A stretch of DNA of 64,000 nt from Bacillota bacterium (lineage in GTDB: Bacteria; Bacillota; Clostridia; Caldicoprobacterales; Xylanivirgaceae), in the NCBI GenBank assembly GCA_023621995.1, contig JAMOAB010000029.1:100105-164104 (forward strand). Reading direction: 5' to 3'. The position numbers and the translations under genes are program-made. Below, one piece after another: positions 12,400-44,899 of the stretch (position 1 is the stretch's first letter; each line of letters starts with the position of its first letter). Under the pieces are notes generated by a model that did not search any database, was not told the DNA's origin, and saw only the letters and a list, made by a program, of their open reading frames with translations.

Positions 12400-12783
12400 G
12401 TGAAAAAAGGAAGTAAGGTTATGGTCTGCGTAACGAGACAAAAGACATGTGAACGCTTAATTAAAGTAGGGCAAAAACTATCTACAAAATTAGAGGGTGA
12501 GCTTAAAGTTGTACATGTTGCTAAAATAGGAGATAATTTTCTAGGTAATCCAGATGAAGGTGAAGCATTAGACTATTTATTTGGGATATCAAAGACTGCC
12601 GGAGCGGATATGACAGTGCTCAGAGCAGAGGATGTGGTAGAAAAATTAGTGGATTTTGCAGATAAAAATAACATAGATATAATAGTAGTTGGAGAGAGCC
12701 CCAGATCTAAAGGAGATGAGAATATAATAAGGCAGCTTGAGCAGAGACTTCCAGACGTAGAGATAAGGGTGATACCTGCATAA
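12400..12783 (+). CDS. Universal stress protein (KdpD USP-like domain)
   Basis: KVMVCVTRQKTCERLIKVGQKLS...LKVVHVA; NNIDIIVVGESPRSK. Confidence 0.78.
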   Translation: MKKGSKVMVCVTRQKTCERLIKVGQKLSTKLEGELKVVHVAKIGDNFLGNPDEGEALDYLFGISKTAGADMTVLRAEDVVEKLVDFADKNNIDIIVVGESPRSKGDENIIRQLEQRLPDVEIRVIPA

Positions 12784-12833: not shown

Positions 12834-12849
12834 TTGTAAGCGCTTACAA
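12834..12849. promoter_or_regulatory. LacI/CcpA-type operator upstream of gnd
   Basis: Perfect 16-bp palindrome TTGTAAGCGCTTACAA, 33 bp before the gnd start. Confidence 0.8.
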
Positions 12850-12881
12850 GAGCATAGTAAAGTATTGAGGAGTGTGGAATT

Positions 12882-14303
12882 ATGGGAAAGTCTGATATAG
12901 GTCTTATAGGTCTTGCCGTAATGGGCCAAAACTTGGTCTTAAATATGGAAAGCAAGGGCTATTCTGTATCGGTATACAACCGTACTGGAGAAAAGACAAC
13001 TGAGTTTATAGAAGGTCCTGCAAAGGGTAAGGATAGAATAACGGCTACATATAGCATGGAAGAGTTTGTAGCATCTCTTAAGAAACCACGTAAAATGATG
13101 ATCATGGTAAAAGCTGGGCGCCCTGTAGATATTGTAATACAACAGCTTCTACCTCTCCTCGATGAGGGTGATATCATAATAGATGGTGGAAATTCATATT
13201 TTAAAGATACTGTAAGGCGATGTGAAGAACTGGAGGAAAAAGGTATATTGTTCCTTGGTGTAGGTGTATCAGGCGGTGAAGAGGGGGCACTTAAAGGTCC
13301 TAGCATCATGCCTGGTGGCTCAATTGAGGCTTGGGAGCAAGTAAACAATATACTTATAGATATATCTGCAAAGGTAGATGGAGATAGTTGCTGTAACTAT
13401 ATAGGCCCTGACGGCGCTGGACACTATGTAAAGACGGTACATAATGGTATAGAATACGGGGACATGCAACTCATAAGCGAGGCATATTTTCTCATGCAAG
13501 AGTTGCTTGGAATGAGTGCCTCCGAGATGCAAGAGGTGTTCAGCAGTTGGAATGAAGGAGAGTTAGATTCCTATTTGATAGAGATTACCGCTGATATTTT
13601 AGGCAAGATAGATGACGAGACAGGTAGGCCAATGGTAGATGTCATCTTAGATAAGGCGGGCCAGAAGGGGACAGGTAAGTGGACTTCACAGGAAGCACTA
13701 GAACTTGGCGTTGCTGCTCCCACAATTGCAGAGGCAGTCTTTGCAAGGTGTATGTCTGCAATGAAGGATGAGAGGGTGGCTGCGTCTAAAGTATTATCTG
13801 GACCTTGTACTGCAAATTGTACGTTTAAAGGAGATAAGGAACAGTTTATAGAAGATATAGGTAAAGCTCTCTATGCCTCAAAGATATGTTCATATGCCCA
13901 GGGGTTTGATCTTATGAAGACGGCATCTGACACCTATGATTGGAACTTAGATCTTGGTAACATTGCTCTTCTTTGGAGGGGTGGATGTATTATAAGGGCT
14001 CAATTTTTAAATGATATAAAAGAAGCCTACGATAGAAATAGTGATCTTGCTAATCTATTGCTAGATGATTACTTTAAAGGAGCTATTGAAGAGGCACAGG
14101 CAGGATGGCGTCGAGTGGTTATGACAGCTGCTGAGTATGGCGTACCTGTACCATCCTTTAGTTCAGCTCTATCCTACTACGATTCTTATAGACGGGATAG
14201 ATTGCCTGCCAATCTCATTCAGGCACAGAGGGATTATTTTGGTGCCCACACATATGAACGTATAGATAAAGAGGGTATATTTCACACAGATTGGTTGGCA
14301 TAG
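12882..14303 (+). CDS. gnd: 6-phosphogluconate dehydrogenase (decarboxylating)
   Basis: [73 protein letters not shown]. Confidence 0.96.
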
Positions 14304-14348
14304 ATAATAAATTTAATTTAGAATGATAATATAAGGAGGAATTATAAC

Positions 14349-15167
14349 ATGAGTATAAATTTTGATTTAAAAGATAAGGTTGCAGTGATAACAGGTGGGG
14401 CAGGTATACTTTGCAGTGAGATGTCAAGGCAACTTGGTGCAAGAGGCGTTAAAATTGCGGTACTAGATATAGACGGCGATAAGGCTAATGAGGTTGCAAA
14501 GGAAATAGTAGATGCTGGTGGCGATGCCATAGGCGTGAAGGTAGACGTTTTAAGTAAGGATAGTCTTATAGAGGCTAAAAAGGTGGTCATGGATAAGTAC
14601 GGCAGAGTAGATATACTTATAAACGGTGCCGGTGGTAATAGACCAGATGCTACTACTAGAGATGATATGACTTTCTTTGATCTTCCCATAGATGCACTTC
14701 AATGGGTATTTAATCTAAACTTTATGGGTACTGTACTTACTACACAAGTATTCGGCGAAGTGATGGTTGAACAAGATGAAGGTAATATAATCAATATCTC
14801 TTCCATGGCAGCTATTAGGCCATTAACTAGAGTTATTGGATATAGTGCAGCTAAGGCTTCAATAGACAATTTTACAAAGTGGATGGCTATATATCTAAAT
14901 CAGAATCATTCTAAGAACATAAAGGTCAATGCAATAGCACCAGGATTTTTACTTACTCAACAGAACTACTATCTATTAGTTGATGAGGAGACTGGTGGAG
15001 ATACAGCAAGGGGTAAAGCCATAAAAGATCACACACCCATGGGCAGATATGGAAAACCTGAAGAGCTTGTAGGGGCTATAATATGGCTAGTATCTGATGC
15101 TGCTTCCTTTGTAAATGGAGCGGTTATACCCATTGATGGTGGTTTCTCAGCTTTCTCTGGAGTATAA
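14349..15167 (+). CDS. SDR family oxidoreductase, probable fructuronate reductase/D-mannonate oxidoreductase (UxuB/YjmF type)
   Basis: Rossmann ITGGAGILCSEMSRQL, NGAGGNRPDATT, YSAAKASI catalytic motif; uronate-locus context. Confidence 0.75.
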   Translation: MSINFDLKDKVAVITGGAGILCSEMSRQLGARGVKIAVLDIDGDKANEVAKEIVDAGGDAIGVKVDVLSKDSLIEAKKVVMDKYGRVDILINGAGGNRPDATTRDDMTFFDLPIDALQWVFNLNFMGTVLTTQVFGEVMVEQDEGNIINISSMAAIRPLTRVIGYSAAKASIDNFTKWMAIYLNQNHSKNIKVNAIAPGFLLTQQNYYLLVDEETGGDTARGKAIKDHTPMGRYGKPEELVGAIIWLVSDAASFVNGAVIPIDGGFSAFSGV

Positions 15168-15181
15168 ATATAAAAAGCAGG

Positions 15182-15210
15182 CTCAGATGGACTTTTCCCA
15201 TCTGAGTTTT
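15182..15210 (+). terminator. Hairpin plus U-tract between the SDR and the larA-like gene
   Basis: CTCAGATGG-acttttc-CCATCTGAG TTTT. Confidence 0.75.
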
Positions 15211-15257
15211 GCATCTAAAAATACTAATTTAGATAAATAGAGAAGGAGGTTAATGAC

Positions 15258-16544
15258 ATGGTTGATATAAGGCTTGAGAGTAAGATGGACTCGGGTTTGA
15301 CAGATGAAGAGATAACAAAGGCGATACGGGACTCTATAGAAGGTCTAGGTAAGGATTTAAAAAAAGTACTCCTTATTCCTCCTGACTTTACCCGTTTTCA
15401 TTCAGGGGCAGGCAAACTTACAGCCATATACTATGACTTACTAAAAGATGACTGTACTGTAGATATATTGCCAGCATTAGGAACTCATATGCCCATGTCT
15501 GATGAGGAGATCTCTGAGATGTTTGGGGATGACATACCTCGTGAACGCTTTATAGACCATAATTGGCGAGAAGATGTGGTAAAGATAGGTGAAGTACCAT
15601 CCGACTTTATAAAAGAAATATCAGAAGGTCTAATGGATGAATCTATAGATGTTGAGGTTAATAAGCTCCTTGTAAGCGGAGAATATGACATAATAATATC
15701 TCTAGGTCAAGTGGTTCCCCATGAAGTAGTAGGTATGGCAAACTACGGCAAGAATATATTCGTAGGATGTGGTGGGAAAAACATGATAAATAGTACCCAT
15801 ATGCTGGGTGCAGTATATGGGCTGGAGCGGCTCATGGGTAAAGACCATTCACCGGTAAGAAAGGTATTCGACTATGCAGAGGAGCATTTTGCACAAGATA
15901 TACCACTTATGTATGTACTTACTGTAACTACTGAATATGAAGGCGCTACTGCAATAAATGGATTGTTTATAGGTAGAGATAGGGGAGTATTCGAAGCTGC
16001 TGTTGCATTGAGTCAAGAGAAGAATCTGACTTTTGTAGATGAACCCTTTAAAAAAGTTGTTGTGTACCTAGATGAACGGGAGTTTAAGAGCACATGGCTG
16101 GGGAATAAATCTGTGTATAGAACAAGAATGGCAATAGCCGACGATGGTGAGCTCATAGTTCTAGGGCCTGGTGTAAGACAGTTTGGTGAAGATGCAGGTA
16201 TAGATAAACTTATTAGGAAATACGGCTATGTAGGTAGGGACAGAGTTTTAGAGCTTTACAATACTGAAGAAGATCTGAAGACAAACCAATCGGTTGCCGC
16301 CCACCTAATCCATGGCTCATCGGATGGCAGGTTTAAGATAACATATGCTGTAAAACATTTGACTAAGGAAGAGATAGAAGGCGTAAATTTTGAGTATATG
16401 CCAATTGAAGAAGCTTATAAACTATATGATCCTAATAAACTTAAGGATGGATACAATACACTAGAAAATGGGGAAGAGATATTCTATATAAGCAATCCGG
16501 CAATAGGGCTTTGGGTAGATAGAGCAAAATTCGAGGGAGAGTAA
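15258..16544 (+). CDS. LarA superfamily nickel-pincer-nucleotide-dependent 2-hydroxyacid racemase/epimerase homologue
   Basis: DFTR, ALGTHMPMSDEE, PHEVVGMANYGKNIFVGCGGKNMINSTH; the H...K(+10)...H(+26) spacing equals LarA H174/K184/H200. Confidence 0.85.
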   Translation: MVDIRLESKMDSGLTDEEITKAIRDSIEGLGKDLKKVLLIPPDFTRFHSGAGKLTAIYYDLLKDDCTVDILPALGTHMPMSDEEISEMFGDDIPRERFIDHNWREDVVKIGEVPSDFIKEISEGLMDESIDVEVNKLLVSGEYDIIISLGQVVPHEVVGMANYGKNIFVGCGGKNMINSTHMLGAVYGLERLMGKDHSPVRKVFDYAEEHFAQDIPLMYVLTVTTEYEGATAINGLFIGRDRGVFEAAVALSQEKNLTFVDEPFKKVVVYLDEREFKSTWLGNKSVYRTRMAIADDGELIVLGPGVRQFGEDAGIDKLIRKYGYVGRDRVLELYNTEEDLKTNQSVAAHLIHGSSDGRFKITYAVKHLTKEEIEGVNFEYMPIEEAYKLYDPNKLKDGYNTLENGEEIFYISNPAIGLWVDRAKFEGE

Positions 16545-16545
16545 T

Positions 16546-17472
16546 ATGGATATGATAGCGTTAGAAAGTAATAAGCTTAGAGTATTGATATCACCTAAAG
16601 TAGGTGGCAGTATATCCTCTATGAAATATAACTATAGAGGGGAGTGGGTAGACGTAATGCGTCCAACTCCCTCTACTGCAATCGAGAGGAGAGAGGCAGG
16701 AGCCTTTGCATCTTTCAATCTAATCCCATTTTCCAACAGAATAGAAAATGGGATATTACAGTATAGAGGCAAAGAGTATATACTGGAAATAAATAACCCT
16801 GATGGTCATACCATCCACGGGGAAGTCTGGCAAAGACCACTTAAAGTCATCCATAGGGACAGTACTAAGGTAGTCCTATCTTTTGAAAGTGAAGAGTTCG
16901 CTGATGTCTCTTGGCCCTTTCCTTTTTATTCGGAGATAACTTATGAACTTGTAGAGGAGAACTGTCTAGCTATAACAATACTACTTAGAAACGTTGGTAA
17001 CTCTACAATGCCAGGTGGGATAGGTATGCACCCATATTTCATGCGCCGGCTGACAGAGGCAGACAACAGGGTAGATTTGCGTATGCCCATAAAAGGTATA
17101 TATCCAGGTGATACTACTATACCTACAGGACATTATATAGAAGTAGAAGATAAGCTAAACTTTACCCAAGGTAGAGAGCTTACAGACGATTTTTTGGATA
17201 ACTGCTTTGCCATTGATAATGGTGATATTGTAATTAGCTGGCCAGGTAGTGGTATATGTGTTATTATGGAGAAAGATGATATATTCTCCCACGGTATTAT
17301 CTATTGCCCAAAAGATGAAAAGGACTTTTTTGCAATAGAGCCAGTTACAAATTGTAACAATGCTTTCAATATGGCTGAACAGGGTATAGATGAGACAGGC
17401 ACTATATATATAGAACCTGGGGCGAGTATAGAAGGTACTGTAAAGGTAAAAATAGAAGACACCGACTGCTAA
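16546..17472 (+). CDS. Aldose 1-epimerase (galactose mutarotase) family protein
   Basis: NRIENGILQYRGKEY, HTIHGEVW, GGIGMHPYF motifs. Confidence 0.88.
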   Translation: MDMIALESNKLRVLISPKVGGSISSMKYNYRGEWVDVMRPTPSTAIERREAGAFASFNLIPFSNRIENGILQYRGKEYILEINNPDGHTIHGEVWQRPLKVIHRDSTKVVLSFESEEFADVSWPFPFYSEITYELVEENCLAITILLRNVGNSTMPGGIGMHPYFMRRLTEADNRVDLRMPIKGIYPGDTTIPTGHYIEVEDKLNFTQGRELTDDFLDNCFAIDNGDIVISWPGSGICVIMEKDDIFSHGIIYCPKDEKDFFAIEPVTNCNNAFNMAEQGIDETGTIYIEPGASIEGTVKVKIEDTDC

Positions 17473-17494
17473 ACAGGCAAGTCGGTGTCTTTTT
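17457..17494. terminator. Terminator between convergent genes
   Basis: AGACACCGACT...AGTCGGTGTCTTTTT. Confidence 0.85.
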
Positions 17495-17503
17495 AAATTA
17501 AGT

Positions 17504-19024
17504 TTACTTTTTGTCCATTCCCAATAAATCTAGATGCTTACCTATGTGTCCTATTAAGAGCTCAACATAGTCTTCTTCATACATATTCCATACATCATAT
17601 AGTCTATCCCTAAATCGATATTGACCATCTTCATTCTTTGCTTGTAGTATGAGTCCATAGGTTATGTGTATGACTTGTCGACTATCAGGATTGTCAAATA
17701 AACTGGGCAGTTCTTCGTCAGTTAGCGTATCTATATCAGGAATATTAGAAGGTTCTGCACTTATATGGTAGTATGCCTTAGCTTCATCCAAGTGTTGTAG
17801 AGAAAACTCATGTATCTCCCTGTATAGCGACGGTGCCTTCTTAGCTACAAGTTTCATGGCTTCTAGCCAGTTTGTACCTGCTGTCTTTAGATGATAGCGA
17901 CCTTTGGTAACTTTACCTACTATAGGGAATATACTGAACTTATCGCTACCTGAATGGACACTTATTTTATAGTCGAAGTGTTTTGATATGGCAAAGTGGG
18001 CAATAAATTCTTCTTCAAATTTTTTAGTGTCTCCTATATAGTCAATGCCTTTTTGGAATTCGCCACAAAAACGAGGAGCTAGGCTTGTAATTTCTACTCC
18101 GCCATCTATTAACTCCCTTGCAACAAAATAATGGGCTTCAGGAGATGTGGGAGTTAATGTTTCATCTATGGACATTTCAAAGTCGATTGGTCTATCTAAG
18201 GGCTTTATATGGGTATTATATATATCTATTGTAAAATGAATGGCATCTATATATGTGAGTACTATTCGTTTAAAATTATCATGGTTAAATTCAAGTCTAT
18301 ATTCAGGGGTTATATCAAATTTTTTATCTAAGTATTTAGATTCTAAATGTGATCGGATATCTTTAGATAGTGCATCATATTTTATTTGGATTGTGTCTTT
18401 ATCGGCATTCGAGATATCATTGTCTATGTGTTCTGAGCAATCAAGGGTGATCATCGTATATCCATGATTGAGCGCCATATGCACCTCTTCATGTGTCTTT
18501 AGATGATCACCATCTGCTCCAAATCCTTCCTTGTACCCCTCTTGAAATACAGCCCAAGAGGCGGCATCTAACACTTCTGTATATGTTCTACCAGTTAAAT
18601 TAAGCTCTCTTATTGATTGCTGTGCTAGGACAGGAAACGCAGGATAATCTCTTATAAGCCGTATATGCCCGGGAGATGCAATCCCCAGCCTATCACCTAG
18701 ACCTATGGTTATATTATGTCTCTTGTGAGAAGTGGGTGCAGTATATGGGAAAAGTTTTCTTAATGTATTAGCATTTGCTTCATTGAGGGGACAAATCTTA
18801 ACACCATCATTTACTACTTCCTCACCTTCAAACACATCATAGACTGGACTTTTACGTAAGACTACAAGATGTTTTCCGCTCTTGTCGCGGGATAAAAAAA
18901 GTGTAGAACCATCTTTTTCATGAATTGAATTAGGATATATACCTAATTCATCTGCACGTTTCTTTAAGTAATCTGCACTTAGGTATACGTCAAATAATTC
19001 ACCATATATTTTTTTAATATCCAT
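17504..19024 (-). CDS. uxaE: Tagaturonate epimerase family protein (UxaE)
   Basis: 506 aa; EGYKEGFGADGDHLKTHEEVHMALNHGYTMITLDCSEHID; SLAPRFCGEFQKGIDYIGD; SVHSGSDKFSIFP; recognised as UxaE-like. Confidence 0.8.
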   Translation of the reverse strand: MDIKKIYGELFDVYLSADYLKKRADELGIYPNSIHEKDGSTLFLSRDKSGKHLVVLRKSPVYDVFEGEEVVNDGVKICPLNEANANTLRKLFPYTAPTSHKRHNITIGLGDRLGIASPGHIRLIRDYPAFPVLAQQSIRELNLTGRTYTEVLDAASWAVFQEGYKEGFGADGDHLKTHEEVHMALNHGYTMITLDCSEHIDNDISNADKDTIQIKYDALSKDIRSHLESKYLDKKFDITPEYRLEFNHDNFKRIVLTYIDAIHFTIDIYNTHIKPLDRPIDFEMSIDETLTPTSPEAHYFVARELIDGGVEITSLAPRFCGEFQKGIDYIGDTKKFEEEFIAHFAISKHFDYKISVHSGSDKFSIFPIVGKVTKGRYHLKTAGTNWLEAMKLVAKKAPSLYREIHEFSLQHLDEAKAYYHISAEPSNIPDIDTLTDEELPSLFDNPDSRQVIHITYGLILQAKNEDGQYRFRDRLYDVWNMYEEDYVELLIGHIGKHLDLLGMDKK

Positions 19025-19046
19025 TGAGAGAACCCCCCTTTAAGAA

Positions 19047-19062
19047 ATGTAAGCGCTTACAT
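19047..19062. promoter_or_regulatory. LacI/CcpA-type operator upstream of uxaE
   Basis: Perfect 16-bp palindrome ATGTAAGCGCTTACAT, 23 bp before the uxaE start. Confidence 0.82.
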
Positions 19063-19257
19063 ATAAGTATAGTACTTTCATTTAATAAAATCAAGGTATA
19101 TGCCTAAATGTCAAATAATAAGTGGGGAAAGATGGTTATATGGCTAATTTTAAGCTTTTGGCAAGTATTTTATTATAGGTGGGGATAAATTACTTATTAA
19201 TTATATTTGTAATCTATATATTATTATCAATCATAGAGAACAGTATAAACTCAATAT

Positions 19258-19300
19258 AGAGATATTCAAAGTTGTTTAGGTTTCAACTTTGAATATCTCT
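19258..19300. terminator. Long hairpin downstream of the 85-aa ORF
   Basis: AGAGATATTCAAAGTTG-9 nt-CAACTTTGAATATCTCT, 17-bp perfect stem; U-tract weak. Confidence 0.6.
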
Positions 19301-19556
19301 AATTATCAAGCTCACGCTTTAAATTATAGAGTTCATCTTCCAGCTCCATAATTTTTTGTCGGACAACTTTCTTTCTTTTTTCTTCTTCATTTTGCATATT
19401 TTGTTCTTGCAGATCAAGTACGGCCAATATAAAGGCAAGAAAATCTCCTGTAAGACTGAGAAAAGCAGCAATTACAGCTAACTTAGCTAGATCTATACCA
19501 TTACATAAATTATTATTATTTCCTTTAGGTGTACCTATTGCCACCACTCCTTTCAT
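19299..19556 (-). CDS. Small hypothetical protein (85 aa) with a hydrophobic segment and a charged coiled-coil-like tail
   Basis: ORF MKGVVAIGTPKGNNNNLCNGIDLAKLAVIAAFLSLTGDFLAFILAVLDLQEQ...; stands alone in an intergenic region with AGGAGTGG-like RBS. Confidence 0.7.
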   Translation of the reverse strand: MKGVVAIGTPKGNNNNLCNGIDLAKLAVIAAFLSLTGDFLAFILAVLDLQEQNMQNEEEKRKKVVRQKIMELEDELYNLKRELDN

Positions 19557-19864
19557 AGATTAGAATGATGGACGTTACTATAATATACTATTCATATAAG
19601 TTACCATTGGTTCTATGTTATTCTATTATATTTGCACCATATAGAGAGGGTATATGACAAAATATAATATGAATTAGCCATATAAAAAGTTAGGTATGTT
19701 TTGTATTGCTACTTAGACCTATTTAGATAAAATATGATGAATGGCAATTAGTACATTACGTATATTGACTAATTGCTTAGGATTTCTTTGTATCATTTGT
19801 AATAAAACGTGAAATATATATAATATATAATCATGTTGAAATTGTACAAAATAAAGGATATAAT

Positions 19865-19888
19865 AATAATGTAAGCGCTTACATTATT
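19865..19888. promoter_or_regulatory. LacI/CcpA-type operator upstream of the lacI-family gene
   Basis: Perfect 24-bp palindrome AATAATGTAAGCGCTTACATTATT, 15 bp before the start codon. Confidence 0.85.
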
Positions 19889-19902
19889 GGAGAGGTGAGC
19901 CA

Positions 19903-20892
19903 ATGAACATATATGAAATTGCAAAAAGAGCAGGAGTATCTATAGCAACTGTCTCCCGAGTAATAAACAACAGTCCTAACGTCCGTAAGGAGACTAGGGA
20001 AAAGGTAGAGGCGGCTATAGAGGAGGCTAACTATACAGTTAACGACATTGCAAGGAGTTTAGCAGCTAAGACTACTCATACCATAGGTGTTATGACAATA
20101 GATGTAAGAGATAGCTATTATGCCAACGCCATATATACAATTGAACAAGAGTTTAGAACATATGGTTATAACGTAATATTATGTAATACTGGTCAAGAAC
20201 TGAGAAAGAAAAAGAAATACTTAAAGATCTTACTCGAAAAACAGGTCGATGGAATAATACTCGTAGGTTCTGTATTCAAAGAGCCTATCCATAACAATCA
20301 TATAATAGAAGCCTCTAAGAAGGTCCCCATTATAATGCTAAATAGTCACATAGGGGAAGAAAATATATATTCTATAGTCTGTGACGATTCATATGCAACT
20401 TATAATATAGTAAAATATCTCTTTGAAAAAGGACATGAACATATAAGATATGTATATGATGTAGATAGCTTTAGTGGGTTAGCTAAATTGTCAGGTTTTG
20501 AAAGAGGCATGAGAGAGTTCCATCTTCCTGTAGATGAAAATACAATAGTTCAGGTATCACCAGGAATCGAAGGTGGTATGGAGGTAATAGACAGATTAGA
20601 AAAAGAAAGTTGTAAATATACAGCCTTAGTTACAAGTGAAGATTTAATTGCAGCAGGGGTTATAAAGCGCTTACGAGATATAAAAAAAAGAGTACCACAA
20701 GATGTAGCAGTGTTTGGATTTAACAATTCTATAATATCCCTATGTACCTATCCTGAACTCTCTAGTGTAGACAATAAAGTAGAAAATATGGCACAGGAAG
20801 CAGTTAAGATTTTATATGATGTACTTAATGAAAAAGAGGTAGATAAGAAAAAGGTGGTGATTCCAGAGCTTATATTCAGAAATAGCTGTTAG
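19903..20892 (+). CDS. LacI family transcriptional regulator
   Basis: MNIYEIAKRAGVSIATVSRVINNSPNVRKETREKV HTH and hinge; periplasmic-binding-like domain. Confidence 0.96.
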   Translation: MNIYEIAKRAGVSIATVSRVINNSPNVRKETREKVEAAIEEANYTVNDIARSLAAKTTHTIGVMTIDVRDSYYANAIYTIEQEFRTYGYNVILCNTGQELRKKKKYLKILLEKQVDGIILVGSVFKEPIHNNHIIEASKKVPIIMLNSHIGEENIYSIVCDDSYATYNIVKYLFEKGHEHIRYVYDVDSFSGLAKLSGFERGMREFHLPVDENTIVQVSPGIEGGMEVIDRLEKESCKYTALVTSEDLIAAGVIKRLRDIKKRVPQDVAVFGFNNSIISLCTYPELSSVDNKVENMAQEAVKILYDVLNEKEVDKKKVVIPELIFRNSC

Positions 20893-20925
20893 CCATAGGA
20901 TTAAGTGAGGGGAGGCAAATGATAT

Positions 20926-22173
20926 ATGATTAAGTCTGACGTGATGTTAAGAAAAACGGTGGAGAAAGTAGTAGACGAAGTCAAGGTTACAGATGTGCAT
21001 ACCCATCTCTATGCTCCGTGTTTCGGAGATCTTCTTCTTTGGGGTGTGGATGAGCTAGTAACCTATCATTATCTGATTGCGGAGGCATTTAGATGGTTAG
21101 ATATCCCCTATGAAGAGTTTTGGGAATTGGATAAAGAGGCTCAATCTGATCTTATATGGCAAAAATTATTTACAGAGAATAGTCCATATAGTGAAGCATG
21201 CCGAGGTGTGCTGACTGTTCTTAACAGATTGGGGCTAGATATCAAGAAGGATGGCCTTCCAGAGTACAGGGATTTTTTCAAGAATAGGACAATCCATGAA
21301 TATATAGATATTGTATTTGATATGGCTGGAGTCAAAGAAGTTGTGATGACAAATGACCCATTTGACGATGTAGAAAGGGAAGTATGGCTCAAAAGTTATG
21401 AAAAAGATGAAAGATTTAAAGCGGCTCTTCGTATAGATCCTCTGTTAAATGGAGGAATAGATATCCTACATCAATTAAGGAGCTGGGGCTATGATGTGGA
21501 GGATCAATTGAATGAAAAGACATACTCAGGGGTACGAAGATTTTTAAGCGAATGGGTAGAGAGAATGGATGCTGTATATATGGCAGTGTCACTTCCGCCT
21601 ACATTTGATTTTCCAGAGGATTCTATGAGGGCAAAACTCATAGAAAATTGTGTGCTCCCAGTATGCAGGGAGTATAACATTCCATTTGCAATGATGATAG
21701 GTGTAAAAAAGCTAACAAATCCTGATCTTAAGCTGGCAGGCGATTCTGTAGGTAAATCTAATATAGATGCAGTAGAATATCTATGTGCTAATTTTCCTCA
21801 CAATAAATTTATGGTAACTATGCTTGCAAAGGAAAATCAACATGAACTATGTGTTGCTGCCCGTAAGTTTAGAAATCTTCTAGTATTTGGATGCTGGTGG
21901 TTTTTAAATAATCCTAGTCTTATAGACGAAATTACGCGGATGAGGTTTGAGTTACTAGGTGTAAGTGTAGTACCTCAGCATTCAGACGCTCGAGTGTTAG
22001 ATCAGCTAATATATAAATGGGATCATTCAAGGAAGATAATAGCCCATGTCCTATATGATAAATACAAGGATCTTATGGATACAGGTTGGCCCATTACTGA
22101 AGAGGATATAGTAAGGGATGTGGAAAAATTAATGGGTGCCAACTTCTGGGAGTTTATAGAAAAAGAGCTTTAA
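20926..22173 (+). CDS. Glucuronate/uronate isomerase family amidohydrolase (UxaC-like, divergent)
   Basis: VTDVHTHLYAPCFGDLLLWGVDELVTYHYL; 415 aa; C-terminal VVPQHSDARVLDQLIYKW; locus context. Confidence 0.75.
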   Translation: MIKSDVMLRKTVEKVVDEVKVTDVHTHLYAPCFGDLLLWGVDELVTYHYLIAEAFRWLDIPYEEFWELDKEAQSDLIWQKLFTENSPYSEACRGVLTVLNRLGLDIKKDGLPEYRDFFKNRTIHEYIDIVFDMAGVKEVVMTNDPFDDVEREVWLKSYEKDERFKAALRIDPLLNGGIDILHQLRSWGYDVEDQLNEKTYSGVRRFLSEWVERMDAVYMAVSLPPTFDFPEDSMRAKLIENCVLPVCREYNIPFAMMIGVKKLTNPDLKLAGDSVGKSNIDAVEYLCANFPHNKFMVTMLAKENQHELCVAARKFRNLLVFGCWWFLNNPSLIDEITRMRFELLGVSVVPQHSDARVLDQLIYKWDHSRKIIAHVLYDKYKDLMDTGWPITEEDIVRDVEKLMGANFWEFIEKEL

Positions 22174-22436: not shown

Positions 22437-24821
22437 ATGGAGATGCTAACTGATAATGCCATTAAGGTACTAGAGAGGAGATACCTAGCCAAAAATAAAT
22501 CTGGTGAACTGATTGAGACTCCTGAGGATATGTTTAGAAGGGTAGCAAAGGCAGTAGCTGAAGCAGATAAAATATACGATAGTGATGCAGATATTCAAAA
22601 AGTAGAACAGGAATTTTTTGAACTCATGTCTAATTTAGAGTTCATGCCTAATTCACCTACTCTTATGAATGCTGGACGTCCACTTGGGCAACTATCTGCC
22701 TGTTTTGTATTGCCAGTAGAGGACTCTATGGAAGGAATATTTGATGCTGTTAAAAATGCTGCCCTCATACATAAAAGTGGTGGTGGAACAGGATTTAGTT
22801 TTTCACGGCTCCGGGCAAAGGGATCTACTGTAAGATCTACAGGAGGAGTAGCAAGTGGTCCGGTAAGCTTTATGAAGGTGTTTAATGCAGCGACCGAAGC
22901 AGTTAAGCAAGGTGGCACACGGCGAGGTGCCAATATGGGCATACTTAGGGTAGATCATCCCGACATATTGGAATTTATAAGCTGTAAGAAACACAATGAT
23001 GAGATAACCAATTTCAATATAAGCGTGGGAATTACTGAAGATTTTATGAAGGCCGTAGAGACGAGTTCCGACTATGACCTAATAGATCCACGTACTGGAG
23101 AACGTTGTGGACATCTTAATGCAAAAGAGGTATTTGATCTAATTGTAGAAAATGCTTGGAACAATGGTGAGCCTGGCATAATATTTTTGGATAGGATAAA
23201 TGCTGACAATGTACTGTCAAAGATAGGTGAAATAGAGAGTACCAACCCGTGTGGTGAGCAACCACTCCTTCCCTTTGAGAGCTGTAACTTAGGATCTATA
23301 AACCTGTCGAGAATGGTCAAGCTAGGCGGAAATGGTAAATATATCATAGACTATGATAAGCTTACACGGGTTGTAGACTCGTCAGTCCACTTTCTCGACA
23401 ATGTAATAGATATAAACAATTATCCATTACCTGAAATCGAGGAGATGACAAAAGGTAGTAGGAAGATAGGTCTAGGTGTCATGGGTTTTGCAGATATGCT
23501 GTTTAAACTTGGTATACCTTATAATAGCGATGAGGCCATACAAATAGCAGAGGATGTTATGAAATTTATTCAAGAGCGTTCTAAACAGGCCTCTATGGCA
23601 CTGGCAGAGAAGCGGGGAGTATTTCCCTACTATGACAAGAGCATATGGAAAGAGCGAGGCATGAAACTTAGAAATGCTACTACGACTACCATTGCACCTA
23701 CAGGTACTATAAGTATAATATGTGGTACCAGCAGTGGGGTAGAGCCTTTGTTTGCAATTTCTTTCATAAGGACTGTAATGGATGATGATGAACTGGTAGA
23801 GGTTCATCCATATTTTAAGCAGATAGCTATTGAGCGAGGATTTTATTCAGAAAAACTTATGCGAGATATAGCTCTTCACGGTTCAATCCAAGGGATGGCC
23901 TCTATTCCATCAGATATACGAAGGTGCTTTGTATGTGCCCACGATGTATCACCTGAATACCACATAAAGATGCAGGCTGCATTTCAAAGATATACAGATA
24001 ATGCCGTTTCAAAGACTGTAAATTTTCCAAGCAGTGCCACAAGGGATGATGTGAGGGAGGTATATTGGCTGGCATATGAGCTGGGATGTAAGGGTGTTAC
24101 AATATATAGGGATGGAAGTAGAGAAGGCCAGGTGCTATCGGTAAAAGCTAAGGATAAGAAGACATTAGGAAATGAGATAGAACAGCGCATGACAGAGGGA
24201 ATAGAAGGAGATAGAAGAGGTAAGATTGTTCCACGGGAGCGGCCGGATGTTACAATGGGTATAACAGAGAAGGTAAAAATAGGTTGTGGTAACCTATATA
24301 TAACCGTCAACTATGATGATCAGGGAATATGCGAGGTATTTACAAATTTAGGTAGGGCTGGTGGCTGTCCATCCCAGTCAGAGGCAACAAGCCGGCTTAT
24401 ATCTTTGGCCCTTCGCTCAGGCATTGAGGTAGAGACCATAATAGAGCAATTAAAAGGTATAAGGTGTCATTCAACACTTAGACAAAAGGGACTTAAAGTG
24501 TTATCCTGTCCCGATGCAATAGGTAGGGTTTTGGAGAAGGTTGCTATGTTGAAGCTTGATGAGGGACTAGACAATGCCAATGATATAGATATAGGGAATC
24601 ATAGTATGGTAGACAGGCATTCGTGCCTTGGTAATTGTTCTCTATGCTCCCTAAAGGATGTATGTCAAAATCCCCAGAAGGAGAATGGAGGCATATATCT
24701 AGGAGTGAGTGCAGATAGGGAATCTAAATTAAATGGTATATGTCCAGAGTGTGGATCTATAATGGAGCACGAGGGCGGATGTGTTGTGTGTAGGGCATGT
24801 GGCTATTCAAAGTGTAATTAA
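22437..24821 (+). CDS. nrdJ: Adenosylcobalamin-dependent (class II) ribonucleotide reductase
   Basis: NSPTLMNAGRPLGQLSACFVLPVEDSMEGIF; GGGTGFSFSRLR; NPCGEQPLLPFESCNLGSINL; ATTTIAPTGTISIICGTSSGVEPLFA; C-terminal Cys motifs. Confidence 0.95.
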   Translation: MEMLTDNAIKVLERRYLAKNKSGELIETPEDMFRRVAKAVAEADKIYDSDADIQKVEQEFFELMSNLEFMPNSPTLMNAGRPLGQLSACFVLPVEDSMEGIFDAVKNAALIHKSGGGTGFSFSRLRAKGSTVRSTGGVASGPVSFMKVFNAATEAVKQGGTRRGANMGILRVDHPDILEFISCKKHNDEITNFNISVGITEDFMKAVETSSDYDLIDPRTGERCGHLNAKEVFDLIVENAWNNGEPGIIFLDRINADNVLSKIGEIESTNPCGEQPLLPFESCNLGSINLSRMVKLGGNGKYIIDYDKLTRVVDSSVHFLDNVIDINNYPLPEIEEMTKGSRKIGLGVMGFADMLFKLGIPYNSDEAIQIAEDVMKFIQERSKQASMALAEKRGVFPYYDKSIWKERGMKLRNATTTTIAPTGTISIICGTSSGVEPLFAISFIRTVMDDDELVEVHPYFKQIAIERGFYSEKLMRDIALHGSIQGMASIPSDIRRCFVCAHDVSPEYHIKMQAAFQRYTDNAVSKTVNFPSSATRDDVREVYWLAYELGCKGVTIYRDGSREGQVLSVKAKDKKTLGNEIEQRMTEGIEGDRRGKIVPRERPDVTMGITEKVKIGCGNLYITVNYDDQGICEVFTNLGRAGGCPSQSEATSRLISLALRSGIEVETIIEQLKGIRCHSTLRQKGLKVLSCPDAIGRVLEKVAMLKLDEGLDNANDIDIGNHSMVDRHSCLGNCSLCSLKDVCQNPQKENGGIYLGVSADRESKLNGICPECGSIMEHEGGCVVCRACGYSKCN

Positions 24822-40948: not shown

Positions 40949-41308
40949 AGGTTACTATCATCGTATATTTGCTATTCTTAATCAATAATGTATAAATAAA
41001 ATTTGGATACAGTCAAATTTATAATACCAAAATGCAAATTTACTGTCAATCAGATCTCAAGCAATTTACTTTTTATGGTAATATAGAACAGTATCGCAAT
41101 AATTTATCATAAATCATAATATTTTATCAATTCTAGAAAAAACCCTAGTCTAAAGCCCTAAAATATTACTAATTTTCATCTAGATAACTCATTGATATTA
41201 TATCATATTCTCTATATCATAGAGATAAGCACATTGATAATCCTAAGAGAGGATAATATTACTTTAATGAATTAATATCAATTGGGAAATGGGGGGTATG
41301 TAGCACAT

Positions 41309-42292
41309 ATGGGAAAAACTATTTACGGTTCAGATATCAAACAAATTGAACAAGGTGTTGTTTCAAAGAAGAGTAGTCCATTTATGCGTTATTTCAAGAA
41401 AAACTACGACATGTATCTACTATTGATACCTACTTTAGTGTTTATAATTATATTCAATATAATTCCAATGTATGGGATAACACTTGCCTTTAAGGATTAC
41501 AATATGTTTGCGGCAGAAACACCATGGAAATCGATTAGTGCTAGTGAATGGGTTGGCTTTAAACATTTTAAAAATGTATTTGGACGAAGTGATTTTAAAA
41601 ATGCCCTAGCCAATACACTGATTATAAGCGCTTATAAGATTTTATTTCTCTTTCCCCTACCGATTATCTTTGCAATATTTTTAAACGAGGTAAATAGTAT
41701 TAAATTTCAAAAGGGATTGCAGCTTATTGTATATCTTCCGCATTTCTTATCATGGGCTGTAGTTGCTGGTATATTTGTTGCTCTCCTTAGTTCAACGGGA
41801 GTAGTCAATATGATGTTAGCTAAGCTAGGGTTTGAAAAAGTTAAGTTCATGATGGACAATTCAGTATTCCGTAAGGTATTAGTTTTCTCAGAAGGTTGGA
41901 AGGAAATTGGATGGAGTTCTATAATATATTTTGCAGCAATTGCAGGCCTAGATCAGGAGTGTTATGAAGCAGCTCATATCGATGGTGCAAATCGCTTTCA
42001 ACAAATATGGTATATAACTATTCCTGGCCTAATGCCCACCATCATTCTAATGCTCATCCTTCGCGTTGGGAGTATTATGGATGCTGGCTTTTCCCAAATT
42101 TTTGCCATGTACAATCCTACTGTATATGAATCGGCAGATATCATAGGCACCTATGTATATCGTATGGGCCTTGGTAAGATGGACTTTAGCATGGGAACAG
42201 CAGTAGGGCTTTTCAACTCGTTAATTGGATTGATATTAGTGTTAAGCTCCAATAAGCTTGCAAAGAAAGCCACAGGCAAGAGCATTTGGTAG
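41309..42292 (+). CDS. Carbohydrate ABC transporter permease (LplB/YteP type)
   Basis: LLIPTLVFIIIFNIIPMYGITLAFKDYN; EAAHIDGANRFQQIWYITIPGL EAA loop. Confidence 0.93.
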   Translation: MGKTIYGSDIKQIEQGVVSKKSSPFMRYFKKNYDMYLLLIPTLVFIIIFNIIPMYGITLAFKDYNMFAAETPWKSISASEWVGFKHFKNVFGRSDFKNALANTLIISAYKILFLFPLPIIFAIFLNEVNSIKFQKGLQLIVYLPHFLSWAVVAGIFVALLSSTGVVNMMLAKLGFEKVKFMMDNSVFRKVLVFSEGWKEIGWSSIIYFAAIAGLDQECYEAAHIDGANRFQQIWYITIPGLMPTIILMLILRVGSIMDAGFSQIFAMYNPTVYESADIIGTYVYRMGLGKMDFSMGTAVGLFNSLIGLILVLSSNKLAKKATGKSIW

Positions 42293-42323
42293 GACAATCT
42301 TAGTAAGGGAGGGAGATAAGCAT

Positions 42324-43211
42324 ATGGCAACTAAACAAAAACATAAGATTTCTGTTTTTACGATCATAAATGTATTTATACTATCACTATTTGGAGTCAT
42401 TACACTACTTCCTGTATTGCATGTTGTTGCAAAGGCCTTTAGTGGTGAAGGTCCAGTGGTAGCAGGCTTGGTGACATTTTGGCCTAAACAATTTCAAACA
42501 GATACTATTAAATATGTATTAAAGAAACCAGAATTTTTAAGTTCTTTTAAAGTTTCGCTATTTGTCACAATAGTTGGGACTGCCATTGCCATGTTTTTGA
42601 CAGTTACAGTGGCATATCCCCTATCTAAACCTGAATTGAAAGGTAGGAAGTTTTTCCTATATATATTTGTGTTTATAATGTTATTTAACGCAGGGATGGT
42701 TCCAAATTATCTATTGTATCGTTCGCTGAATTTGACTAACACTATTTGGGCTTTAATCTTTCCAGGTGCCTTTTCTGTATTTAACATGCTAGTTGTTAAA
42801 AATTATTTTGAGTCACTACCAGAGACTGTAGAAGAGGCAGCTAGAATTGATGGGGCATCCAATATGCAGACACTTTATAAAGTGGTGATTCCCATGTCTC
42901 TGCCAGTTTTAGCAACGGTGACATTGTTTTATGCAGTTGGCTTTTGGAATAACTATATGTCTGGTGTCCTATATATTACAGATCCGTCTTTGAAACCACT
43001 ACAGCAATATCTATATGATTTAATCAATGAAGCTCTTGAGACTATCGATGCTACAGGTAATATTGCGGATATAGATTCAGCAATGAACCTTACAGGTGAG
43101 AGTGTGCGTGCGGCAACTATTGTTGTGTCTACAGTACCTATATTGCTTGTCTATCCATCCCTACAAAAATATTTTGTAAAGGGTATAACCATAGGTTCTG
43201 TAAAGGGATAA
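42324..43211 (+). CDS. Carbohydrate ABC transporter permease (LplC/YtcP type)
   Basis: EEAARIDGASNMQTLYKVVIPMSLPVLATV; ATG at 42324 behind GGGAGGGAGATA. Confidence 0.93.
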   Translation: MATKQKHKISVFTIINVFILSLFGVITLLPVLHVVAKAFSGEGPVVAGLVTFWPKQFQTDTIKYVLKKPEFLSSFKVSLFVTIVGTAIAMFLTVTVAYPLSKPELKGRKFFLYIFVFIMLFNAGMVPNYLLYRSLNLTNTIWALIFPGAFSVFNMLVVKNYFESLPETVEEAARIDGASNMQTLYKVVIPMSLPVLATVTLFYAVGFWNNYMSGVLYITDPSLKPLQQYLYDLINEALETIDATGNIADIDSAMNLTGESVRAATIVVSTVPILLVYPSLQKYFVKGITIGSVKG

Positions 43212-43294
43212 GATTTGAAGAGGAGCTTTACAGATTCAATTGTAAGGCTTTAATATAAAAACAAAGACTAGATATAAAATAAAAACTAGGAGGT

Positions 43295-44899
43295 ATGATT
43301 ATGAAGAGGGTTTTGAGTATTTTACTTGCCATAATGATCATCTTTACAGTTGTTGGATGTTCTGGAGGCGAGAAGGCTGACAGTCCTCAAACAGACACTA
43401 CCGTAACAGAAAAAGAAGGTAAGGAGTCTGATGACAAATCTGATGAACCAGAAGGAGAGGAAGATCCAATACTTTCAGATGAAAAACCTGAGCTAAAGAT
43501 TCTCACATACTATACAGGTTTTAACATGGAAGAACAGCCTAGCTATGAAGTAGTAGAAGAGATGACAGGTTATAAGGTGAAATGGTTTAATCTCCCACAA
43601 GAAAATGCAGATGAAAAGTTATTACTTGAAATAGCAGGTGGTACTTCGTATGATCTTTTAATGAGGATGAGCACTAATCAGACGAATCAGTTATATGTTC
43701 AAAATGCGTTAGTAGATTTAAAACCATACTTAGATAAATACGGCGAAAATATATATGAAGGTATATCTGATATGTCATTAGAAGCTCTTACCGATGAAGA
43801 TGGCATGATTTATGCTATACCCCACGAACCGTTTGATGAACCACAACCTGGTGATAATCCTTACGGTGTTCTAAAAGGAGGAATTGGCTTCAATTCTACC
43901 TATTTAGAGGAGTTAGGTAAAGATATACCCAAAAATTTAGATGAGTTCTACGACGTATTAAAGGCATATACCGATAAAACTGGCAAACCAGCATTTACAC
44001 AGTCTGCTGTAGGTTGGAACAACCATATTCTAGCTGCTTTTGGAATGGGAGATCCAAGCTGGTATGAGATAGATGGAGAATATGTCCATCGCATTAAGCA
44101 TCCTAAAGCTGTAGAATATCTAGCCTTTATGCAGAAGCTATATAAAGAGGGCTTACTGGACAATGATTTTCCTGTGAATACAGCTGAAACAGCAAAAGAG
44201 AAATTTGCAAATGGAACAGTTATCGCTTATCCTGTTATGTTTTGGAGTATAGATAGTATATATAATGCATTTGAAGCAGCAGGACTTGATGCAAAGGTAA
44301 AGGTAGCCACATATCTTGCTCCAGATGCTGAAACTGATCCTGTTGTCTATATAAGGCAGGGAATCCTCAATACAACATGTATTCCTAAGACTGCAGAAAA
44401 CCCAGAGCATGCAATAAATTGGTTTAATACAATTTCCGATAAGGATAACTTTGAGAAAATATATCTTGGTGAAGAAGGCGACTCCTATGAGATCAAGGAT
44501 GGAAGCTATTACCCGATATTCCCAGCCTTTGATGACTTTACTAATTCTGATAAATTTACAGGGGTTGCACCTGCAAGCAATGTATTCCAAATGTGGCAGG
44601 CAAGGGCGCGTAAGACAGATGCTATGGCTGAGATATATGATCAGATGAACTCTAGAATAGATGAATATAAGACCGAATATTATTATGAAAATTACGCGGC
44701 GTCCCTTGAAGCAGTGCAGAAAAATAAAATGGCACTAGATACTATGGTCAACGACTCCTTAATTCAAGCCATTGTAGATGGAGTGGATCCTCAAAAGGCT
44801 ATAGATGATATAATCGAAGAATGGGATAAGACCGGTGGACTTGAATATGAGGAAGCTATGAAAAATTGGTACAAAGAAAATAAGGATAAATTTAATTAA
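43295..44899 (+). CDS. Extracellular sugar-binding lipoprotein (ABC, LipO type)
   Basis: MKRVLSILLAIMIIFTVVGCSGG lipobox; DUF3502-like large SBP; follows permeases. Confidence 0.92.
   Translation: MIMKRVLSILLAIMIIFTVVGCSGGEKADSPQTDTTVTEKEGKESDDKSDEPEGEEDPILSDEKPELKILTYYTGFNMEEQPSYEVVEEMTGYKVKWFNLPQENADEKLLLEIAGGTSYDLLMRMSTNQTNQLYVQNALVDLKPYLDKYGENIYEGISDMSLEALTDEDGMIYAIPHEPFDEPQPGDNPYGVLKGGIGFNSTYLEELGKDIPKNLDEFYDVLKAYTDKTGKPAFTQSAVGWNNHILAAFGMGDPSWYEIDGEYVHRIKHPKAVEYLAFMQKLYKEGLLDNDFPVNTAETAKEKFANGTVIAYPVMFWSIDSIYNAFEAAGLDAKVKVATYLAPDAETDPVVYIRQGILNTTCIPKTAENPEHAINWFNTISDKDNFEKIYLGEEGDSYEIKDGSYYPIFPAFDDFTNSDKFTGVAPASNVFQMWQARARKTDAMAEIYDQMNSRIDEYKTEYYYENYAASLEAVQKNKMALDTMVNDSLIQAIVDGVDPQKAIDDIIEEWDKTGGLEYEEAMKNWYKENKDKFN

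What the first reader, a model, noticed from the sequence alone, without database searches (positions are those of the whole stretch)
12834..22173. Candidate dehydratase-independent hexuronate pathway: mannonate to gluconate epimerisation feeding 6-phosphogluconate dehydrogenase
Seen: gnd, a UxuB-type SDR, a LarA-family protein and a mutarotase are consecutive on +; uxaE is convergent; a lacI-family gene and a uronate isomerase-like gene follow. gnd, uxaE and lacI share one operator palindrome. No mannonate dehydratase (UxuA), KDG kinase or KDPG aldolase lies in the window. Established: UxaC isomerises galacturonate/glucuronate, UxaE epimerises tagaturonate to fructuronate, and UxuB-type enzymes reduce fructuronate to D-mannonate. 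To my recollection some LarA-superfamily members are D-gluconate 2-epimerases, and mannonate is the C2 epimer of gluconate. Inference: the LarA homologue converts D-mannonate to D-gluconate, which a gluconokinase encoded elsewhere phosphorylates for Gnd, giving ribulose-5-P and CO2. That would be a uronate route avoiding the KDG branch and linking uronates to the oxidative pentose phosphate pathway.
Basis: partly seen in the sequence, partly recalled or inferred. Interest (0 to 1): 0.85.

Follow-up and report, generated by a model that had tools for sequence, protein, structure and literature searches.

The report
Clostridial uronate-to-gluconate pathway operon
A gut- or digester-type Clostridia bacterium carries a co-regulated gene set that most likely turns pectin and glucuronate sugars into gluconate with a nickel-cofactor epimerase and on into the pentose phosphate pathway; this route was already proposed for Thermotoga, but the enzyme version here is untested, and many bacteria that carry it lack the known genes for making its cofactor.

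Summary
The genes, the coordinates and three exact TGTAAGCGCTTACA operators are real. The LarA protein belongs to NCBIfam NF052594 (LarA group 18, 'putative hexonate epimerase'), keeps the GntE signature E-V-A-H, and folds closest to T. maritima GntE2 (4NAR). Of 96 group-18 loci, 60 have gnd within five genes and 40 a sugar kinase. In Saccharobesus litoralis, group 18 is fused to a GntK-type gluconokinase, beside larE, larB, uxaE and gnd. The route itself is not new: Rodionova 2012 proposed it for Thermotoga and Desguin 2020 showed mannonate/gluconate epimerase activity in groups 19 and 20, but group 18 has not been assayed. The surprise is elsewhere: 25 of 40 group-18 genomes, including a single-contig genome, have no LarB, LarC or LarE, although every NPN-binding and catalytic residue is intact. 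An isolate (Peloplasma) also lacks LarC. Verdict: a new variant of a known kind, with an open cofactor question.

The parts
12835..12848 (.). operator TGTAAGCGCTTACA upstream of gnd
   Evidence: exact match, 0 expected; same position upstream of the operon's first gene in relatives
12882..14303 (+). gnd, decarboxylating 6-phosphogluconate dehydrogenase
   Evidence: TIGR00873 757 bits; no zwf in the genome or in family members G001-G003
14349..15167 (+). SDR-type fructuronate reductase (UxuB-like D-mannonate oxidoreductase)
   Evidence: NF006132 377 bits, above cut-off 281
15258..16544 (+). larAH18, group-18 LarA homologue; predicted NPN-dependent D-mannonate/D-gluconate 2-epimerase
   Evidence: NF052594 665 bits; residues D43 R46 H77 H155 K165 H181 K284 and E156/V157 plus the AAH motif; fold closest to 4NAR, TM 0.80; fused to gluconokinase in Saccharobesus
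16546..17472 (+). aldose 1-epimerase family mutarotase, probably for uronate anomers
   Evidence: PF01263; near larAH18 in 13 of 96 loci
17504..19024 (-). uxaE, tagaturonate/fructuronate 3-epimerase, convergent
   Evidence: PF16257 677 bits
19048..19061 (.). operator upstream of uxaE
19870..19883 (.). operator upstream of lacI
19903..20892 (+). LacI-family regulator of the cluster
   Evidence: PF00356 and PF13377; orthologue with the same operator in relatives
20926..22173 (+). uronate isomerase of the BH0493 type
   Evidence: 566 bits to PDB 2q08/3hk5 'Uronate isomerase'; the genome has no PF02614 UxaC

Best explanation
A LacI-controlled hexuronate regulon. Galacturonate and glucuronate are isomerised by the BH0493-type isomerase to tagaturonate and fructuronate; UxaE converts tagaturonate to fructuronate; the SDR reduces fructuronate to D-mannonate; [quoted passage not shown] a gluconokinase (in this genome most likely the FGGY kinase at G000:C56:11592-13028) makes 6-phosphogluconate; Gnd gives ribulose-5-phosphate, CO2 and NADPH. 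This replaces the dehydratase/KDG branch and, at the level of NAD(P)H count, is redox-neutral to ribulose-5-phosphate. Shown here: gene identity, shared operator, linkage, genome-wide presence and absence, fold and residues, the fusion. Inferred: substrate and direction of the LarA reaction, identity of the kinase, flux.
For: Group-18 LarA with all catalytic and NPN-binding residues and the E-V-A-H signature reported for GntE enzymes (signature from PMC11770544); nearest solved structure is GntE2 4NAR. Own genome: LarB, LarC1/LarC2 and LarE present; UxuA, UxaA, PF02614 UxaC and Zwf absent in a 98.5% complete genome, so Gnd has no G6PD to feed it and uronates have no visible dehydratase route. 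Gnd within five genes in 60, SDR in 39 and a sugar kinase in 40 of 96 non-redundant loci; three kinase types occupy the kinase slot: an FGGY clade mostly 55-61% identical to the genome's own C56 kinase, a second FGGY clade and a PfkB. In Saccharobesus litoralis WP_159084288.1 a GntK/IdnK gluconokinase (184.8 bits, cut-off 113.75) and group-18 LarA (618.9 bits, cut-off 500) are one protein, beside larE, larB, uxaE, gnd and uxaC; Catenovulum adriaticum has gntK-larAH18-larC-larE-larB with uxaC. Conserved operator.
Against: No group-18 protein has been assayed in the literature held (PMC7583248 only hypothesises a hexonate). LarB/C/E are absent from 25 of 40 group-18 genomes, which does not fit a simple NPN enzyme. 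The genome's kinase is unlinked to the cluster and scores below the gluconokinase model's cut-off (314 against 649 bits). A KDPG aldolase is present elsewhere in the genome. LarAH18/UxuA exclusion is significant over the class sample (6 of 40 against 46 of 108, p=0.0018) but not within the order (p=0.30), and neither test is corrected for phylogeny.
Confidence: 0.82

Rival explanations
1. Kinase first: mannonate is phosphorylated to 6-phosphomannonate and the LarA protein epimerises that to 6-phosphogluconate, as cell extracts of Lactobacillus suebicus do. The net route is the same, but the LarA substrate is different.
For: Mannonate kinase and 6-phosphomannonate 2-epimerase activities were shown in L. 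suebicus, which expresses UxaC, UxaE, UxuB, GntK and 6PGD, with no UxuA detected in the proteome (PMC6978723). The kinases found here are assigned by family only.
Against: The sister groups 19 and 20 act on unphosphorylated D-mannonate (PMC7583248) and group 18 shares their signature residues; the fused and linked kinases in Alteromonadaceae score as GntK/IdnK gluconokinases above cut-off.
Confidence: 0.12
2. The LarA protein epimerises a different hexonate or aldarate (for example altronate, or glucarate/mannarate), and Gnd serves a separate sugar.
For: Desguin 2020 suggests that GntE1 might act on aldaric acids because of its high KM (PMC7583248); five of 96 loci also carry UxaA and UxaB.
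Against: In the window genome no altronate dehydratase is present and the cluster has UxaE and an SDR instead; its neighbours are consistently Gnd and kinases, with a gluconokinase fusion.
Confidence: 0.05
3. The palindrome is only a catabolite-repression (cre) site for CcpA, and the genes are not a dedicated LacI regulon. This rival concerns regulation only and is compatible with the pathway.
For: The sequence fits TGWAANCGNTNWCA exactly.
Against: Only three places match in 64 kb, all at this cluster, and in 117 related loci nearly all copies sit upstream of gnd, SDR, larAH18, uxaE or lacI. A lacI gene with the same site upstream of itself is typical of a local regulator.
Confidence: 0.2

Closest known systems
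Thermotoga maritima UxaR regulon gnd-uxaRED-gntEK (Rodionova 2012, 2013; PMC3750489)
   Same: UxaE, a fructuronate reductase, a LarA-family gluconate 2-epimerase, gluconokinase and Gnd in one regulon; same proposed flux into the pentose phosphate pathway
   Different: There: group-20 GntE2, UxaD reductase, GntR-family UxaR, and a co-regulated kdgA-kdgK-uxuB-uxuA operon. Here: group-18 LarA, SDR reductase, BH0493-type isomerase, LacI regulator, unlinked FGGY kinase, and no UxuA, UxaA or Zwf in the genome.
LarAH20/GntE2 and LarAH19/GntE1 D-gluconate 2-epimerases (PMC7583248)
   Same: LarA fold, NPN-site and catalytic residues, E-V-A-H signature
   Different: 26% identity to GntE2 in the structural alignment; distinct subfamily (NF052594); the SGGxK stretch before the NPN lysine reads NY[G/S/T]K; activity untested
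Lactobacillus suebicus galacturonate pathway (PMC6978723)
   Same: Upper isomerase route joined to 6-phosphogluconate and redox-neutral to ribulose-5-phosphate
   Different: There kinase first, then 6-phosphomannonate epimerase, genes unidentified
Canonical UxaC-UxaB-UxaA / UxuB-UxuA-KdgK-KdgA isomerase pathway
   Same: Upper steps to mannonate
   Different: No dehydratase; UxuA and UxaA absent from the genome

Membership tests
LarA superfamily, group 18 (NF052594) | Score above the curated 500-bit cut-off over the full model | tested here: met
   665 bits, positions 3-410 of 411
LarA superfamily, group 18 (NF052594) | LarA fold | tested here: met
   AlphaFold model, pLDDT 86; 4NAR TM 0.80, LarA 5HUQ TM 0.69-0.73
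NPN-dependent LarA enzyme | Catalytic and NPN residues equivalent to D72, R75, H108, H174, K184, H200, K298 | tested here: met
   all present in the window protein and in the 37 members aligned
NPN-dependent LarA enzyme | NPN biosynthesis genes larB, larC, larE in the same genome | tested here: met
   met in the window genome; not met in 25 of 40 group-18 genomes of the relative set
D-gluconate 2-epimerase (GntE) | Signature residues E, V, A, H at LarA positions 175, 176, 358, 359 (PMC11770544) | tested here: met
   E156, V157 and the SVAAHLIHG motif, placed against 4NAR by the alignment
D-gluconate 2-epimerase (GntE) | D-mannonate/D-gluconate epimerase activity | not testable with these tools
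   needs an enzyme assay
T. maritima-type mannonate-to-gluconate uronate pathway | uronate isomerase, UxaE, fructuronate reductase, LarA epimerase, gluconokinase and Gnd all encoded | tested here: met
   the kinase is unlinked and below the model cut-off
T. maritima-type mannonate-to-gluconate uronate pathway | all genes in one regulon | tested here: inconclusive
   gnd operon, uxaE and lacI(-isomerase) share the operator; the kinase is unlinked and its promoter was not tested
Canonical UxuA/UxaA isomerase pathway | mannonate or altronate dehydratase | tested here: not met
   UxuA absent, UxaA absent
BH0493-type uronate isomerase | full-length similarity to BH0493 | tested here: met
   566 bits over residues 4-412

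The most novel reading that the evidence does not exclude
Most carriers of this epimerase do not make its nickel-pincer cofactor by LarB/C/E and yet keep a fully conserved enzyme: they obtain NPN (or a late precursor) from neighbouring microbes as a shared cofactor, or make it by an unrecognised route. In the window's own family, NPN synthesis genes are present in this genome but not found in its congener and two further genera, while the larAH18 operon is retained by all four.
Probability: 0.45. Interest if true: 0.8.

Novelty: new variant of a known kind. Interest (0 to 1): 0.5.

Why it matters
It gives strong comparative support to a uronate route that has been proposed since 2012 without in vivo proof, assigns a specific substrate to an untested LarA group that is widespread in rumen, gut and digester Clostridia, explains a Gnd without Zwf, and names candidate gluconokinases of several families. 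It also exposes a testable gap: a predicted nickel-cofactor enzyme kept in many genomes without the cofactor's known biosynthesis genes.

Tried and rejected
Contamination as the source of LarB/C in the window genome was considered and rejected: larC2-larC1-larB sit in a purine cluster between guaA and guaB; the neighbouring purine genes match the congener at 76-91% identity, and G007 has the same larC-larB-guaB order after purE. Loss of LarB/C/E through incomplete MAGs was rejected as the general cause: LarB and LarC agree in 57 of 58 genomes, all three are missing from a single-contig genome and from several genomes of 94-100% estimated completeness, and an isolate lacks LarC. Degenerate LarA in the genomes without LarBCE was rejected: residues intact. 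Growth phenotype of Peloplasma aerotolerans (LarC-negative isolate with uxaE-pfkB-gnd-SDR-larAH18): the paper has no data on uronates. Rodionova 2012 and Desguin 2014 full texts were not held, so their content is cited through later papers. No phage record carries the protein.
Full report
WHAT IS THERE. Gnd, a UxuB-type SDR, a LarA homologue and a mutarotase run consecutively on +; uxaE is convergent; lacI and a uronate isomerase follow. The isomerase has no Pfam or NCBIfam match but is a full-length relative of BH0493 (566 bits), whose PDB entries name it uronate isomerase; the genome has no PF02614 UxaC. The LarA protein is placed by NCBIfam in NF052594, 'nickel-dependent putative hexonate epimerase' (665 bits), which corresponds to LarA group 18 of Desguin 2020 (PMC7583248). 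Three exact operators TGTAAGCGCTTACA lie upstream of gnd, uxaE and lacI, with none expected by chance.

The window lies in G000:C28 of a 3.08 Mb, 98.5% complete draft. It has one LarA homologue, LarB and split LarC1/LarC2 in a purine cluster, and LarE on another contig. UxuA, altronate dehydratase and G6PD are absent; a KDPG aldolase is present. KDG kinase was not searched for. So Gnd has no visible glucose-6-phosphate supply and no visible dehydratase drains mannonate; both fit feeding of Gnd from gluconate. The FGGY kinase at C56:11592-13028 is 55-61% identical to kinases that in eight related loci sit inside the gnd/SDR/larAH18 cluster (48-49% in a ninth); its best NCBIfam model is gluconokinase, though below cut-off.

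COMPARATIVE EVIDENCE. Over 96 non-redundant group-18 loci from two samples, gnd lies within five genes in 60, the SDR in 39, a kinase in 40, UxaE in 11, canonical UxaC in 11. The kinase is of several types, the pattern of non-orthologous replacement at one step. On plasmids of two Alteromonadaceae the link is tighter: in Saccharobesus litoralis a GntK/IdnK gluconokinase and group-18 LarA form one 589-aa protein, followed by larE, larB, uxaE, gnd and uxaC; in Catenovulum adriaticum uxaC, a TRAP transporter, gntK, larAH18, larC, larE and larB are consecutive. In the passages read, the published study of S. litoralis (as Catenovulum sp. CCB-QB4) did not assign this gene to the pathway. The operator is conserved upstream of gnd, SDR, larAH18, uxaE or lacI in relatives. 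UxuA is rarer in group-18 genomes (6/40 against 46/108, p=0.0018), but not significantly so within the order, and phylogeny was not corrected for.

THE ENZYME. All residues that bind NPN or act in catalysis in LarA are present in the 37 aligned members, as is the E-V-A-H set reported for gluconate epimerases (PMC11770544; one member, G040, has S before the H). The AlphaFold model (pLDDT 86) matches T. maritima GntE2 (4NAR) best, TM 0.80, ahead of all lactate and malate racemases.

WHAT IS KNOWN. Rodionova 2012 proposed mannonate epimerisation to gluconate, then gluconokinase and 6PGDH, for Thermotoga (cited in PMC6978723 and PMC3750489). Desguin 2020 measured the epimerase reaction for groups 19 and 20 and hypothesised a hexonate for group 18. 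Valk 2020 showed a kinase-first version in L. suebicus extracts.

THE SURPRISE. LarB and LarC co-occur in 57 of 58 genomes of the relative set, but group-18 LarA is statistically independent of them (15 of 40 with any of LarB/C/E, against 45 of 108 genomes without group 18; p=0.7). LarB, LarC and LarE are all missing in 25 of 40, including a single-contig genome (G006), the 100%-complete G003, the congener G001 and family member G002. In the second sample LarC is missing in 30 of 48, including the isolate Peloplasma aerotolerans, whose cluster is uxaE-pfkB-gnd-SDR-larAH18; LarB and LarE were not tested there. On the LarAH18 tree the presence/absence label needs eight changes, at least six forced by well-supported branches. 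In the window genome larC2-larC1-larB lie between guaA and guaB, and the same larC-larB-guaB order follows purE in G007; in G001-G003 that block is not at the purine cluster and LarB/C are not detected anywhere, which suggests loss rather than gain. No explanation was tested; the literature held does not discuss it in the passages found. Many genomes with other LarA groups also lack LarC, so the puzzle may be broader than this pathway.

VERDICT. The pathway reading is likely correct (0.82 including the order of steps) but not new in kind. The value lies in the strong assignment of group 18, the fusion, Gnd without Zwf, and the cofactor gap.

Noticed in passing
L160:12248-13470 (G000:C14): In the window genome LarC is split into LarC1 (254 aa) and LarC2 (137 aa) ORFs; the LarC2 profile match starts at position 11 at the ORF's first residue, so a frameshift-joined protein, as I recall for L. 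plantarum, is possible. G007 has the same split.
   Followed up: partly
L093, L109, L113, L132 (between larAH18 and gnd): A PHP-domain phosphoesterase (closest model 3',5'-nucleoside bisphosphate phosphatase, below cut-off) lies between larAH18 and gnd in several Clostridia; role unknown.
   Followed up: partly
L049 (357-aa PfkB ORF) and about 27 further loci: A PfkB kinase next to gnd and larAH18 has no NCBIfam model above cut-off (best is the kinase part of a KHG/KDPG aldolase/kinase fusion); candidate PfkB-type gluconokinase.
   Followed up: partly
L178:11482-13251 (NZ_CP026605.1): Gluconokinase-LarAH18 fusion protein WP_159084288.1 on a plasmid, annotated only as gluconokinase.
   Followed up: yes
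window 12400-12783: A universal-stress-like protein (Usp) directly upstream of the gnd operator is conserved there in family members G001-G003.
   Followed up: no
window 41282-44899: An ABC transporter of two permeases and a large solute-binding protein, next to a sensor kinase/AraC regulator pair; its substrate is unknown and it has no exact operator copy (one with two mismatches at 41623).
   Followed up: no
window 22437-24821: A large ribonucleotide-reductase-like gene follows the isomerase; judged by eye from the translation, not checked.
   Followed up: no
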